Of a stretch of 20,533 nt of DNA, positions 15,784-20,123 are shown one piece after another; the stretch's first letter is position 1, and the number at the start of each line of letters is the position of its first letter. Below the pieces are notes generated by a model that was not told where the DNA came from, did not search any database, and saw only the letters and a program-made list of their open reading frames with translations. This stretch comes from an uncultured Bacilli bacterium. Its GTDB lineage: Bacteria; Bacillota_I; Bacilli_A; RF39; UBA660. Where the stretch lies: positions 1 through 20,533 of the forward strand of contig CANQFI010000016.1 in NCBI GenBank assembly GCA_947598455.1, written 5' to 3'. The translations under genes and the position numbers were made by a program.

Positions 15784-15830
15784 GTTATCGACCACTTTTG
15801 TACTAATTATATATGAAATTGGTCGATAAC
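15784..15830. repeat. 47-nt palindrome-ended repeat, copy 1 (downstream of the ATPase)
   Basis: Perfect 11-bp inverted arms GTTATCGACCA (15784-15794) and TGGTCGATAAC (15820-15830) enclose a 25-nt AT-rich centre. The same arms with a centre of identical length (18 of 25 bases equal by hand alignment) recur in the same orientation at 17142-17188, so the pair brackets the ATPase gene. The ATPase stop codon is 30 nt away. On the minus strand the hairpin precedes a T-run (CATAATTTTTT), so it might also end ATPase transcription. Confidence 0.9.
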
Positions 15831-15860
15831 ATTAATGGTTCAGAAAGAAATAAAATTTTT

Positions 15861-17096
15861 TTATAAATCTTCATTTTTATAAATAAAATCAACTATATTA
15901 ACATTTTTTATCCCATCAATATTTTTTTGAAGAATTAAATCTAAAACAAATAAGTATCGAGGATATAAATCTTTAATTTCGTAAAAAGGTTTATATTCTC
16001 TGTTGGCTGTTTCAACATCATCTATATTTTTTGATATTTGAATATAAAAGTATTCATCTATTCCACGTCGTGCTATGAAATCACATTCTAAATTACCAAT
16101 TTTACCAACACTTAAACTATAATCTTTACTTTTTAAGTATGAATATAATGTATTTTCAAGTACTGGTCCATAATTTATTCTGTTATCGGTATTAAGCGCA
16201 AAATAAATACTCAAATCAGCTAAGTAATATTTTTTCTCACCATCTAATACTTTTTTTGATTTAATATCAAATAAATCGCATGGGTATAAAATTTTTGCAT
16301 TTTCTAAAACTTCGATATAGTTTTTTATTGTTCTTCTATCTACATTTATTTTCTGATCTTTTGTTAAATATTCATATATACTACCGATTGAAATTCTTGC
16401 TCCAAAATTATTTATAACAAATTTTTGAATTACTTCAAATAGTTCTGGATCTTTTATTTTTTTATGAGGTTTAATGTCTTTATCAAAAATTTGGTTGATG
16501 ACATTGTTAGTATATAATAATTTATCTTCATATCGATCGTATTTTAACGAACCTGGAAAGCCACCATTTCTTATGAATTCTTCAAATTCATTATATATAT
16601 TAGAGTTAATATCTTTGCCTAAGAATTTTTTCATATCAACATATTCATAGAAGTTAAGCGGTAACATTTCTACTTCAATATATCTACCAGTAAGTTTAGT
16701 AATTAGTTCACCTGATAATAAATATGAATTTGATCCGGTTAAAAAGATTGAATAATCTCCTTCTTCTCTATAGGCATTAACAATAGGTTCAAATCCTGTA
16801 ACGTTTTGAACTTCATCAATGAATAGATATTTAAAATCATTATTATTTTTAACAAGAGAATCAATAGTTTTTTCTAATTGCTCAGGTGTTTCAATACTTT
16901 TGTATCCTTTTTTATCTAGCTCAATATAAATTATATTTTTCTCTTCTATACCTTGCTCTTTTAATTCTTCAATTATACTTTTTAGTAAAAAAGATTTACC
17001 ACATCTACGTATTCCAGTAATAACTTTAATCATTGTATCATTATAAAATCCTCTTAATTTGTTTAGATAACTTTCCCTTTTATATATTTCTTCCAT
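15861..17096 (-). CDS. AAA_14 / DUF4143 family ATPase with PD-(D/E)XK-like C-terminus
   Basis: 411-residue P-loop ATPase of the large, often multicopy AAA_14-DUF4143 family, whose biological role is not settled. Walker A GIRRCGKS (28-35), Walker B YLFIDEVQ (90-97), sensor region FLTGSNSYLLSGE followed by LTGRYIEVEMLPLNFYEY, RNGGFPGS, then a winged-helix-like middle (IGSIYEYLTKDQKINVDRRTI). The C-terminal DUF4143 part contains NLECDFIAR...EYFYIQISKN, resembling a degenerate PD-(D/E)XK nuclease core with QIS in place of ExK. A 5'-extension to 17174 would run into the hairpin repeat; the ATG at 17094-17096 has AGGTGA at 4 nt and gives the family's usual N-terminus. It stands alone with its own promoter between two copies of a 47-nt repeat, which suggests a mobile or self-regulated cassette (inference). 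Confidence 0.9.
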   Translation of the reverse strand: MEEIYKRESYLNKLRGFYNDTMIKVITGIRRCGKSFLLKSIIEELKEQGIEEKNIIYIELDKKGYKSIETPEQLEKTIDSLVKNNNDFKYLFIDEVQNVTGFEPIVNAYREEGDYSIFLTGSNSYLLSGELITKLTGRYIEVEMLPLNFYEYVDMKKFLGKDINSNIYNEFEEFIRNGGFPGSLKYDRYEDKLLYTNNVINQIFDKDIKPHKKIKDPELFEVIQKFVINNFGARISIGSIYEYLTKDQKINVDRRTIKNYIEVLENAKILYPCDLFDIKSKKVLDGEKKYYLADLSIYFALNTDNRINYGPVLENTLYSYLKSKDYSLSVGKIGNLECDFIARRGIDEYFYIQISKNIDDVETANREYKPFYEIKDLYPRYLFVLDLILQKNIDGIKNVNIVDFIYKNEDL

Positions 17097-17112
17097 GGTA
17101 TCACCTATTAAA

Positions 17113-17141
17113 ATTATATGATGTTTTGTTAAAAAAAGCAA
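17113..17141 (-). promoter_or_regulatory. promoter of the ATPase gene, abutting the repeat
   Basis: Minus strand TTGCTT (17141-17136), 17-nt spacer, TATAAT (17118-17113), then the SD AGGTGA. The -35 overlaps the outer end of the palindromic repeat (arm 17140-17152), so a protein bound to the repeat would be well placed to control it. Confidence 0.55.
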
Positions 17142-17188
17142 GTTATCGACCACTTTTTGACTTTTTATATGCAAAATTGGTCGATAAC
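17142..17188. repeat. 47-nt palindrome-ended repeat, copy 2 (upstream of the ATPase)
   Basis: Same arms as copy 1 (17142-17152 and 17178-17188), here extended to 13 bp (17140-17190), around a 25-nt centre. Read on the minus strand it is followed by GC and seven T (17137-17131), so it can act as a terminator insulating the ATPase promoter. Start-to-start distance to copy 1 is 1358 nt. The only other feature inside that span is the ATPase promoter. Confidence 0.9.
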
Positions 17189-17210
17189 TTCCAATTTTGC
17201 ATATAAAAAG
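17161..17210. repeat. perfect 20-bp inverted repeat interlocked with repeat copy 2
   Basis: Arm 17161-17180 (CTTTTTATATGCAAAATTGG) and arm 17191-17210 are exact reverse complements, with a 10-nt spacer. The left arm is the centre plus the first bases of the right arm of repeat copy 2, so the two hairpins cannot form together. The right arm's end is also the U-run of the terminator at 17205-17226. Confidence 0.92.
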
Positions 17211-17731: not shown

Positions 17732-17755
17732 AAAAAGAAGAGATTAACTCTTCTT
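17732..17755 (-). terminator. intrinsic terminator of pheST
   Basis: Minus strand: 8-bp stem AAGAAGAG (17755-17748) / CTCTTCTT (17742-17735), 5-nt loop, short T-run. The first bases of the stem are the pheT stop codon (17754-17756). Confidence 0.75.
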
Positions 17756-20123
17756 AGTTTCTTAATTTAGCATTCATTTTTGATTCTACTTCATTGATTA
17801 TCTTATTGAAGATTTCCATTACTTCATCATCTAATAAAGTCTTAGTATTATCTTTGAATGTTAATTTATAAGCGATTGATTTTTTACCTTCTTCAATGTT
17901 TTCATATAAATCAAAGACTTCAATAGTATCTAAAAGACGGCCACCAGCTTTTTTAATTACTGATTTAATATCTTCACTTAAAACATTGTTATCAACAACA
18001 AAAGCAACATCTTTAACTATTTCTGGATACTTAGAAGCTTCTTTATATTTGATAGGTTTAATTGTTTTATTATATAGGGCTGTTAGAGATAATTCAACTA
18101 CATATATTTCATCTTTTTTATAGTTTGGATGAACACGTCCTATAATACCTATTTCATCACGATCAACGAGTATTTTAGCAGCGATACCAGGATGAAGATC
18201 AGTTACATCATTAACGGCTTCAAATGTATATCTATTTTTAAATCCTAAGTAGTTAAGTAAGTTTTCGACAACACCTTTTAAGCAATAGAAATCACATTTT
18301 ATAATACTATGTTGCCATTCATTAGTTAAGTAATTACCTTTCATTAAAATAGCTATTTTAGTATCTTCATTATAATTTATATCATATGTTTTAGCTATTT
18401 CATATAACATAACATCTTTAACATGACGAGCCTTATTATAATCATAGACATTTAATAATGATGGTAATAATGTTTTACGAATTACTGATTTATCAATACT
18501 CATTGGATTTGGTAAAACGATATTTTCTTTGTTTTCATAGTTGAAATGGCTAGCCATATCTGGAGAAGTTAAAGTATAAGTTTTAGTTTCGTTAATACCT
18601 AAAGTTCTTAATCTTTTTGAAGTTTCTTTTCTTATTTTAACATCACCAACATAGACACCTTTTCTAGTAGGTACTAAAGGTAGTGTAGATACTAAGTTTT
18701 CATAACCATATAAACGACCAATTTCTTCAGCGATATCATTAACATTTGGATCAATATCTAGTCTTCTTCTTGGAATAGTAACAGTAAATGTATCTTTAGT
18801 TAATTTATATGGGAAACCTAAACGATTAAGTTCAGTTTCAACGTCAGTATCAGTTAATTCTAAACCTAGTAAAGTAGATACTTCTTTAGTTTTAAATTTA
18901 ACTACTTTTTCAGTTTTATCTACTTTATCATGAACTGCACGACCGCTTAAGACAGTAGCATTAGCATATTTTTCTAGTAAGTAACATGCACGATTTAAAG
19001 CAGCATCAGTATATTCATATGATAAGCCTTTACCATAACGGATAGAAGCTTCGCTTTTTAAATCTAGACGACTAGATGTGTATCTGATACTTACAGAATC
19101 AAAGATAGCACTTTCAATTAAGATATCTTTAGTAGTTTCATCAACATCAGTATTTTCACCACCCATAATACCGGCGATACATACTGGTTTTTTACCATCA
19201 GTTATAACAATATCAGTATCTTTTAAAATTCTTGTTTGACCATCTAAAGTAATTATTTCTTCGTTTTCTTTAGCATTACGAACTAAGATATTATCTCCTA
19301 GTTTGTCTTTATCAAAGAAGTGAAGAGGTTGACCATATTCTAACATGACGTAGTTAGAAATATCGACAACGTTATTTATTGGACGCATACCAGCAGCAAT
19401 AAGTCTTTTTTTCATGAAGTCAGGAGATTCTTTTATTTCAACGCCTTTAACCATTTTGGCTGTATAGTATGGGCATTTATCAGTATCAACTTTTAATTTA
19501 AGATGTTTATTAACATCATCAGTTATTTCTTTATAGTTACTTTCTGGTAATGTAACTGGTTTATTTAGGATACTAGCTATTTCATAAGCAAAACCAATAT
19601 GATAGTAGCAATCATTATTACGGTGTTTATGTACATCTAATTCATATAAGGTATCATCAGTACCTAAATAGATATTTGCATCAGTACCTGGTTCTAAATC
19701 AGTATCTAATACTTCAATACCTTTAGCATATGTTTCATCATTTTTTTCTTCTAAACCTAGTTCAAATAAGGCACATATCATACCATTTGATTCTTGACCA
19801 CGAATTTTACCAGCTTTGATTTCGTTATCACCAGGTAAGATACATCCAGGTAGAGCTACTAAGACTTTAATACCTTTTTTAACATTAGGAGCGCCACATA
19901 CGATTTGAACTGTCTTATCACCAACATCTACTAAACATAAATGTAAGTGATCACTATCTGGATGGTCTGTACATTCAAGGATTTGACCAATAACTAAGTT
20001 TTCAATACGACTATCAACAACTTTTTCAACATTAACACCAGCTTTAGTTATTTTAACAGCTAGTTCATGAAGATCTTCGTTTTTGATATCAACATAATCT
20101 TTAACCCAATTTAAACTTATCAT
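17754..20123 (-). CDS. pheT: phenylalanyl-tRNA synthetase beta subunit
   Basis: Beta chain of the alpha2-beta2 PheRS; it carries tRNA-binding and editing domains. 789 residues (B. subtilis about 804). Order: start MISLNWVKDYVDI; EMAP/OB tRNA-binding domain (about 39-150) with ILECTDHPDSDHLHLCLVDVG and VCGAPNV; B3/B4 editing region (about 205-375) with MLEYGQPLHFFD and GIMGGENTDV; B5 region (about 395-465); the pseudo-catalytic core with LPNPMSIDKSVIRKTLLPSLL; and the C-terminal ferredoxin-like anticodon domain (about 695-789) starting near KYPEIVKDVAFVVD. It begins 2 nt after the pheS stop with AAGGA upstream, so the two subunits are translationally coupled. It ends in a terminator that includes its stop codon. 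No anomalies seen. Confidence 0.98.
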   Translation of the reverse strand: MISLNWVKDYVDIKNEDLHELAVKITKAGVNVEKVVDSRIENLVIGQILECTDHPDSDHLHLCLVDVGDKTVQIVCGAPNVKKGIKVLVALPGCILPGDNEIKAGKIRGQESNGMICALFELGLEEKNDETYAKGIEVLDTDLEPGTDANIYLGTDDTLYELDVHKHRNNDCYYHIGFAYEIASILNKPVTLPESNYKEITDDVNKHLKLKVDTDKCPYYTAKMVKGVEIKESPDFMKKRLIAAGMRPINNVVDISNYVMLEYGQPLHFFDKDKLGDNILVRNAKENEEIITLDGQTRILKDTDIVITDGKKPVCIAGIMGGENTDVDETTKDILIESAIFDSVSIRYTSSRLDLKSEASIRYGKGLSYEYTDAALNRACYLLEKYANATVLSGRAVHDKVDKTEKVVKFKTKEVSTLLGLELTDTDVETELNRLGFPYKLTKDTFTVTIPRRRLDIDPNVNDIAEEIGRLYGYENLVSTLPLVPTRKGVYVGDVKIRKETSKRLRTLGINETKTYTLTSPDMASHFNYENKENIVLPNPMSIDKSVIRKTLLPSLLNVYDYNKARHVKDVMLYEIAKTYDINYNEDTKIAILMKGNYLTNEWQHSIIKCDFYCLKGVVENLLNYLGFKNRYTFEAVNDVTDLHPGIAAKILVDRDEIGIIGRVHPNYKKDEIYVVELSLTALYNKTIKPIKYKEASKYPEIVKDVAFVVDNNVLSEDIKSVIKKAGGRLLDTIEVFDLYENIEEGKKSIAYKLTFKDNTKTLLDDEVMEIFNKIINEVESKMNAKLRN

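What the first reader, a model, noticed from the sequence alone, without database searches (positions are those of the whole stretch)
15784..17188. AAA_14-DUF4143 ATPase bracketed by two same-orientation copies of a 47-nt palindrome-ended repeat
Both copies have identical 11-bp arms (GTTATCGACCA / TGGTCGATAAC) and 25-nt centres that match at 18 of 25 positions. They lie 30 nt after the stop and 45 nt before the start of a solitary ATPase gene, and the arm sequence was seen nowhere else in the window. This looks like a cassette boundary or a paired binding site. The ATPase family is often multicopy with an unsettled role and ends in a PD-(D/E)XK-like domain, so gene plus hairpins could be a self-recognising, possibly mobile unit. 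Mobility is inference; no transposase is present.
Basis: partly seen in the sequence, partly recalled or inferred. Interest (0 to 1): 0.75.

Follow-up and report, generated by a model that had tools for sequence, protein, structure and literature searches.

The report
Immune-type ATPase reading its own palindrome
A lone ATPase gene of a type suspected to defend bacteria against viruses sits behind a palindrome that the protein itself most likely reads to control its own promoter, and in related genes the palindrome and the DNA-reading helix change together.

Summary
The two 47-nt palindromes are real and non-random. The copy before the gene matters most: its arm abuts the -35 box of the ATPase promoter (TTGCTT-17-TATAAT). 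The protein (AAA_14, winged helix, DUF4143) matches PDC-S01, an abundant anti-phage candidate. Of 17 close relatives found by protein, 16 keep a dyad there; 14 identical changes hit both arms, 11 one arm. Residue 254, first of the recognition helix, changes with arm positions 10-11. Of 88 distant paralogues, 46 have a strong inverted repeat abutting a -35/-10 pair, against 4 of 83 other genes, and operator classes go with their own recognition helices. So the palindrome is most likely the ATPase's own operator. Bracketing is exceptional: 8 of 50 distinct subfamily loci, 1 of the 17. Self-recognition is well supported by comparison, self-mobility is not; binding, the sign of control and any defence role are inferred.

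The parts
17142..17188 (-). Palindrome copy 2 (operator copy): GTTATCGACCA n TTTT - 15 variable - AAAA n TGGTCGATAAC, upstream of the ATPase
   Evidence: upstream of relatives
17136..17141 (-). -35 box TTGCTT, directly abutting the palindrome
   Evidence: sequence, (consensus match only)
17113..17118 (-). -10 box TATAAT, 17-bp spacer
   Evidence: sequence, (consensus match only)
17100..17105 (-). ribosome-binding site GGTGAT
   Evidence: sequence
15861..17096 (-). ATPase gene, 411 aa, AAA_14 + winged helix + DUF4143; PDC-S01 of PADLOC
16641..17033 (-). AAA_14 domain (residues 22-152): G28, R30, G33-K34, D94-E95, S122-N123, R138 invariant in 70 aligned proteins
16221..16448 (-). winged helix-turn-helix (residues 217-292)
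   Evidence: secondary structure of the model; fold matches 2qen/2fna over residues 1-303
16299..16337 (-). recognition helix (residues 254-266, RRTIKNYIEVLEN); residue 254 co-varies with the operator
15864..16172 (-). DUF4143, PD-(D/E)XK-type fold (residues 309-411): E314, E337-x-D339, Q353; no conserved Lys
15784..15830 (-). Palindrome copy 1, after the gene; arms intact while the centre has diverged

Best explanation
The palindrome is the cognate DNA site of this very ATPase, read by its winged helix and placed on its own promoter. A dimer (or a larger assembly) on the two arms blocks the -35 box and holds the gene low: negative autoregulation. Shown by sequence and comparison: the position at the promoter, a dyad kept through paired changes, co-variation of recognition helix and half-site within the subfamily and across paralogue classes, one locus per genome. 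Inferred: that the protein binds it, that binding represses, and that the STAND-like ATPase with its PD-(D/E)XK-type tail is a virus-triggered effector kept low in this way. The second copy behind the gene looks like a local duplication of the site, with flank in two loci; it may serve as a second binding site (looping) and lets the gene drop out by recombination, leaving one site.
For: Position: the arm ends 0-2 nt before a -35 box with a 16-18 bp spacer to -10 in 33 of 36 subfamily genes tabulated. Relatives found by protein: 15 in 14 of 291 family genomes plus 2 further copies in genomes that had been chosen by the palindrome; of these 17, 10 have it at up to 3 mismatches, 6 a diverged dyad, 1 (L071) none. 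Paired change: 14 identical both-arm changes against 11 single-arm in 11 arm pairs picked and aligned by hand; L069 and L214 share theirs. Residue 254: R in all 44 genes (38 distinct) with an exact palindrome within 140 nt upstream and in 5 genes with a changed palindrome that keep GACCA; I, D or Y in 6 genes, of which 5 have position 10 changed alike on both arms (position 11 too in 4) and the sixth (L071) has no dyad. Paralogues: strong inverted repeat (at most 2 of 40 shuffles as good) in 67 of 88 against 17 of 83 control genes; strong and abutting a -35/-10 pair in 46 of 88 against 4 of 83. Classes pair with helices: CCAAAAC with SNHTVENY, GCAAAAC with SNHQTIDNY, GTAATAAC with SNETLYNY, AAATAAC with STETLY. 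Half-site similarity correlates best with identity in residues 206-285 (r 0.62 and 0.66; standardised weight 0.64 and 0.70, other regions -0.11 to 0.16). Purifying selection on the gene: dN/dS 0.00-0.12 in 8 close pairs. Second-copy arms 22/22 in the window while the inner 15 nt match 9/15.
Against: No binding or expression data. In sliding windows residues 121-160 follow the operator at least as well (partial r 0.29-0.31) as the winged helix (0.18-0.27), and in paralogues 316-355 too (0.26); a ranking of single columns by operator class did not single out the winged helix (9 of the top 40); kinship is not removed by the permutations. 10 of 15 plasmid-borne homologues from other groups show no strong repeat upstream, nor do 21 of 88 paralogues. 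L071 has none; in L007 and L069 no -35 box abuts; in L028 the palindrome lies 112 nt from the start. Sites without an ATPase keep near-perfect arms (partly because the search asked for them).
Confidence: 0.75

Rival explanations
1. Self-moving cassette: the palindromes are the ends or the target of a mobile unit moved by the ATPase or its nuclease-like tail.
For: Up to 35 groups of flanking context among 66 loci (an upper limit, short or diverged flanks inflate it). Three orthologous site pairs with two copies plus gene against one copy without: window / L023 and L050, L041 and L021 / L044, L007 / L030. L041 and L053 duplicate exactly 11 nt of flank with the palindrome, like a target-site duplication.
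Against: 42 of 50 distinct full genes have no copy behind them; no transposase or recombinase domain in the protein and no other ORF of 80 aa or more between the copies; no excess of the own half-site downstream of paralogues (1 of 73, permuted mean 1.9). Several gene-less sites keep ATPase pieces (L035, L121, L125 by tblastn; L122, L123 promoter and first codons by eye). No exact palindrome in the viral contigs; all 232 plasmid and 17 phage records with a match are below 60% identity. At the window's site 12 genus genomes show no palindrome in the stretch read, but flanks are too changed to read an insertion.
Confidence: 0.12
2. The palindrome is a transcription terminator or RNA hairpin of the neighbouring gene, and its link to the ATPase is a by-product of insertion behind genes.
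For: Decayed single copies look like terminators (L294: hairpin plus T8; L240 possibly); G326 has a terminator-like hairpin at the L044 site.
Against: The arm sequence, not only its pairing, is conserved across genera and the length is 46-48 nt; bases next to the arms and the middle do not pair above shuffles; position tied to -35, outside the ATPase transcript; never two loci per genome; arm bases follow the protein's helix.
Confidence: 0.06
3. The palindrome is bound by another regulator of the host, not by the ATPase.
For: Not excluded by position alone; single sites persist in genomes without a subfamily ATPase (11 of 12 searched; draft genomes, so absence is not certain).
Against: Co-variation with the ATPase's own helix in several clades; no second locus in the genomes searched.
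Confidence: 0.07

Closest known systems
PDC-S01 (PADLOC candidate single-gene anti-phage system; AAA_14-DUF4143)
   Same: Near full-length profile match; ATPase fused to a PD-(D/E)XK-superfamily domain, as PMC12988326 states (passages)
   Different: Cognate promoter palindromes and a helix code are not in the passages seen; word searches (palindrome, inverted repeat, operator, promoter) in the main text of two of the three held papers gave only CRISPR mentions or nothing
Archaeal STAND-like ATPases SSO1545 (2fna) and PABY2304 (2qen)
   Different: 20-22% identity in that alignment; the DUF4143 tail is outside it
IniR, a signal-transduction ATPase that binds a promoter (PMC5760070, passages only)
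   Same: SSO1545-like ATPase working as a transcription regulator
   Different: MalT-like middle domain and a C-terminal DNA-binding domain; acts on another operon
Self-regulated toxin-antitoxin and restriction C-box operators (recalled)
   Same: Palindromic operator at the promoter of its own gene, specificity groups
   Different: Single gene here: regulator and presumed effector in one protein
REP-RAYT elements (recalled)
   Same: Protein and palindrome co-vary; palindromes flank the gene in some loci
   Different: One locus per genome; no transposase domain found

Membership tests
PDC-S01 | match to the PADLOC models over the whole protein | tested here: met
   PDLC04787 E 1.3e-128, residues 1-408 of 411
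PDC-S01 | anti-phage activity | not testable with these tools
   validation said to be pending for most such candidates (PMC12988326, passage)
AAA_14 / DUF4143 (Pfam) | both domains above gathering score | tested here: met
   115.9 vs 27 bits; 43.2 vs 28.1 bits
STAND-like NTPase | P-loop, Walker B, winged helix after the AAA core | tested here: met
   invariant residues, model, fold matches
PD-(D/E)XK nuclease | core fold | tested here: met
PD-(D/E)XK nuclease | catalytic Lys beside the conserved acidic residues | tested here: not met
   E314, D339, Q353 kept; position 355 is S/A/T/C, 356 K in 31 of 70; activity stays open
REP / terminator repeat family | many copies per genome | tested here: not met
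   20 sites in 19 of 291 genomes, never two loci
Insertion sequence | transposase or recombinase gene in the unit | tested here: not met
   no such domain in the ATPase; no other ORF of 80 aa or more between the copies
Autoregulated operator | palindrome overlapping or abutting own -35 | tested here: met
   window and 33 of 36 subfamily genes
Autoregulated operator | binding and repression | not testable with these tools
   needs experiment

The most novel reading that the evidence does not exclude
PDC-S01 proteins are self-guarding immune ATPases: bound to their own subfamily-specific palindrome they are both repressed and kept inactive, and viral attack that strips them from the site both raises expression and fires the nuclease-like assembly. 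Changing one helix together with one site insulates the several paralogues of a genome, like phage immunity types, and the second palindrome in the window is a real second site that loops the gene.
Probability: 0.2. Interest if true: 0.88.

Novelty: new variant of a known kind. Interest (0 to 1): 0.7.

Why it matters
PDC-S01 is reported as the fourth most common defence (candidate) across prokaryotes (PMC12988326, passages) and the most frequent single locus in rumen genomes (PMC13356809, passages), while those passages name no target for it. A predicted protein-site code with named residues and bases gives a directly testable molecular interaction for the family and a way to read specificity groups from genomes.

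Tried and rejected
REP or terminator family: rejected by copy number. Integron attC: the arm GTTATCG does not fit GTTRRRY (motif recalled). Carrier on viruses or plasmids: no exact palindrome in viral contigs, no close homologue in plasmid or phage records. A PDB relative by sequence: none below E 0.1. Rfam was not searched. Target-site duplication: exactly 11 nt in L041 and L053, but only about 7-8 of 11 in L007, L018, L022, L052 and no likeness in the window (read by eye); cluster-1 sites give no clean duplication, so no insertion mechanism is claimed. Orthologous sites without the palindrome (G326, G360 and others) carry other hairpins or terminators, so the direction of change stays open. 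Searches in the genus of L022 (1 genome), L052 (58) and L030 (6, not followed in detail) gave no informative empty site; the genus of L053 (2 genomes) gave a decayed single copy. The own downstream half-site cannot be tested by permutation inside the subfamily because all share it (5 of 30 against permuted mean 4.45). Promoter calling in a first version missed 24 of 127 genes and was replaced.

Full report
Check of the observation. Four arm matches in the window compare with 0.13 expected. The gene is AAA_14 plus DUF4143, most likely 411 aa from the ATG at 17096.

Distribution. An exact scan of genome contigs (one genome for each of 84,980 species) for the arms 20-30 nt apart gave 57 stretches, mostly metagenome-assembled genomes labelled Bacilli, Tenericutes or Clostridia, with a total length of 46-48, mostly 47 nt. 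40 of the 57 hold an ATPase match at 65-82% identity (L008 and L014 cut by a contig end), two more (L038, L054) are cut just after the gene start, and 15 have no whole ATPase beside the site. In the window's family, 291 genomes searched by protein gave 15 subfamily members at 66-82% in 14 genomes and then a gap down to 40% or less; searched by palindrome at up to 3 mismatches they gave 20 sites in 19 genomes, two of them the pair of one locus. This is not a repeat family; it is the site of one ATPase subfamily.

Where it sits. In gene orientation the right arm is followed within 0-2 nt by a -35 box, 16-18 nt and a -10 box in 33 of 36 subfamily genes, in the window TTGCTT-17-TATAAT (consensus matches). 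The palindrome therefore lies outside the predicted transcript and abuts the promoter. Selection by the palindrome is avoided in the set found by protein: 15 family members plus 2 further copies in genomes that had been picked by the palindrome. Of these 17, 10 have it at up to 3 mismatches, 6 a diverged dyad in the same place, 1 none. Inner arms (nTTTT...AAAAn) are conserved too (92-99% per T in 53 distinct 47-mers); the position next to the arm and the middle 15 nt are free and do not pair above shuffles.

The wider family. For distant paralogues (33-40% identity) the best upstream inverted repeat beats at least 38 of 40 shuffles in 67 of 88 genes, against 17 of 83 intergenic upstream regions of other genes (ORFs of 150 aa or more in L002-L058, not the paralogues' own loci); strong and abutting a promoter-like -35/-10 pair in 46 of 88 against 4 of 83 (first pass, where downstream regions had a median score of 8.5 against 12.5 upstream). 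The repeats fall into classes with their own recognition helices, apart from 20 of 101 genes left as 'other'. In one pair of classes residue 254 again moves with one base: the STET helix with AAATAAC in 5 of 5, the SNET helix with TAATAAC in 8 of 9 (right arm), the ninth (L201) being a hybrid operator; one further GTAATAAC gene (L148) has SRET. Half-site similarity follows protein identity (0 of 500 permutations as high), most strongly in residues 206-285; but in 40-residue windows 121-160 do at least as well (partial r 0.29-0.31 against 0.18-0.27), 316-355 also count in paralogues, and kinship is not removed. Outside this family 5 of 15 plasmid-borne homologues show a strong repeat, two of them next to TTGAC.

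Gain and loss. At three orthologous sites two copies plus gene in one genome face one copy without gene in another: window against L023 and L050, L041 and L021 against L044, L007 against L030. In 15 genus genomes, 14 gave the side of the neighbouring translation-factor gene: 2 with a single copy (the same genomes as L023 and L050), 12 without any in the stretch read (at most 420 nt; 155 nt in L101). Genomes of 12 gene-less sites were searched whole: 11 have no subfamily ATPase, one (G311) has a 68% member elsewhere. Gene pieces next to several single sites (L035, L121, L125 by tblastn; L122, L123 by eye) point to loss. Eight of 50 distinct loci have the second copy. In L041 and L053 it includes exactly 11 nt of flank; in L053 the centre is inverted between copies. 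In the window, L018 and L052 the arms stay 21-22 of 22 while the inner 15 nt fall to 6-9 of 15, near the level of unrelated sites (mean 5.0; 9 or more in 7% of pairs), so the second copy's arms seem to be kept by selection.

Reading. The most economical account is a self-recognising gene: the winged helix reads its own dyad and closes its own promoter. Calling it mobile rests on scattered contexts (up to 35 groups among 66 loci) and empty sites, which loss between direct repeats and ordinary transfer also explain. What the protein does is suggested by PADLOC (PDC-S01) and by its STAND-like core; anti-phage function is unproven in the passages seen. Three held papers name PDC-S01; none of the passages seen speaks of an operator, and the listings of searches showed no such report, in a library that lacks many journals.

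Noticed in passing
window 17161-17210: A perfect 20-bp inverted repeat pairs the centre and part of the right arm of copy 2 with host DNA just outside it; imperfect in L023, not seen in L050.
   Followed up: partly
L053 89-135 and 1426-1472: The two copies have inverted centres (12 of 15 inner positions when inverted, 5 direct) inside matching flanks, as if the middle had flipped.
   Followed up: partly
L294, L240: Decayed single palindromes seem to have become terminator hairpins followed by T runs; certain only for L294.
   Followed up: partly
L119 1501-1547: A palindrome with one mismatch sits before a promoter-like sequence of what looks like another gene (by eye).
   Followed up: no
L201 (G274:C64): Hybrid operator: left arm of one class, right arm of another.
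   Followed up: no
upstream of L088, L165, L192: CCAAAAC-class genes carry a third half-site further upstream, followed by TTGTC, a possible second operator (by eye).
   Followed up: no
L341 (G273:C3): Subfamily member with one in-frame TGA that keeps its own dyad.
   Followed up: no
window 17754-20123 and L007: In window and L007 the ATPase lies near a matching gene, pheT by recall: chance, old inheritance or site preference.
   Followed up: no
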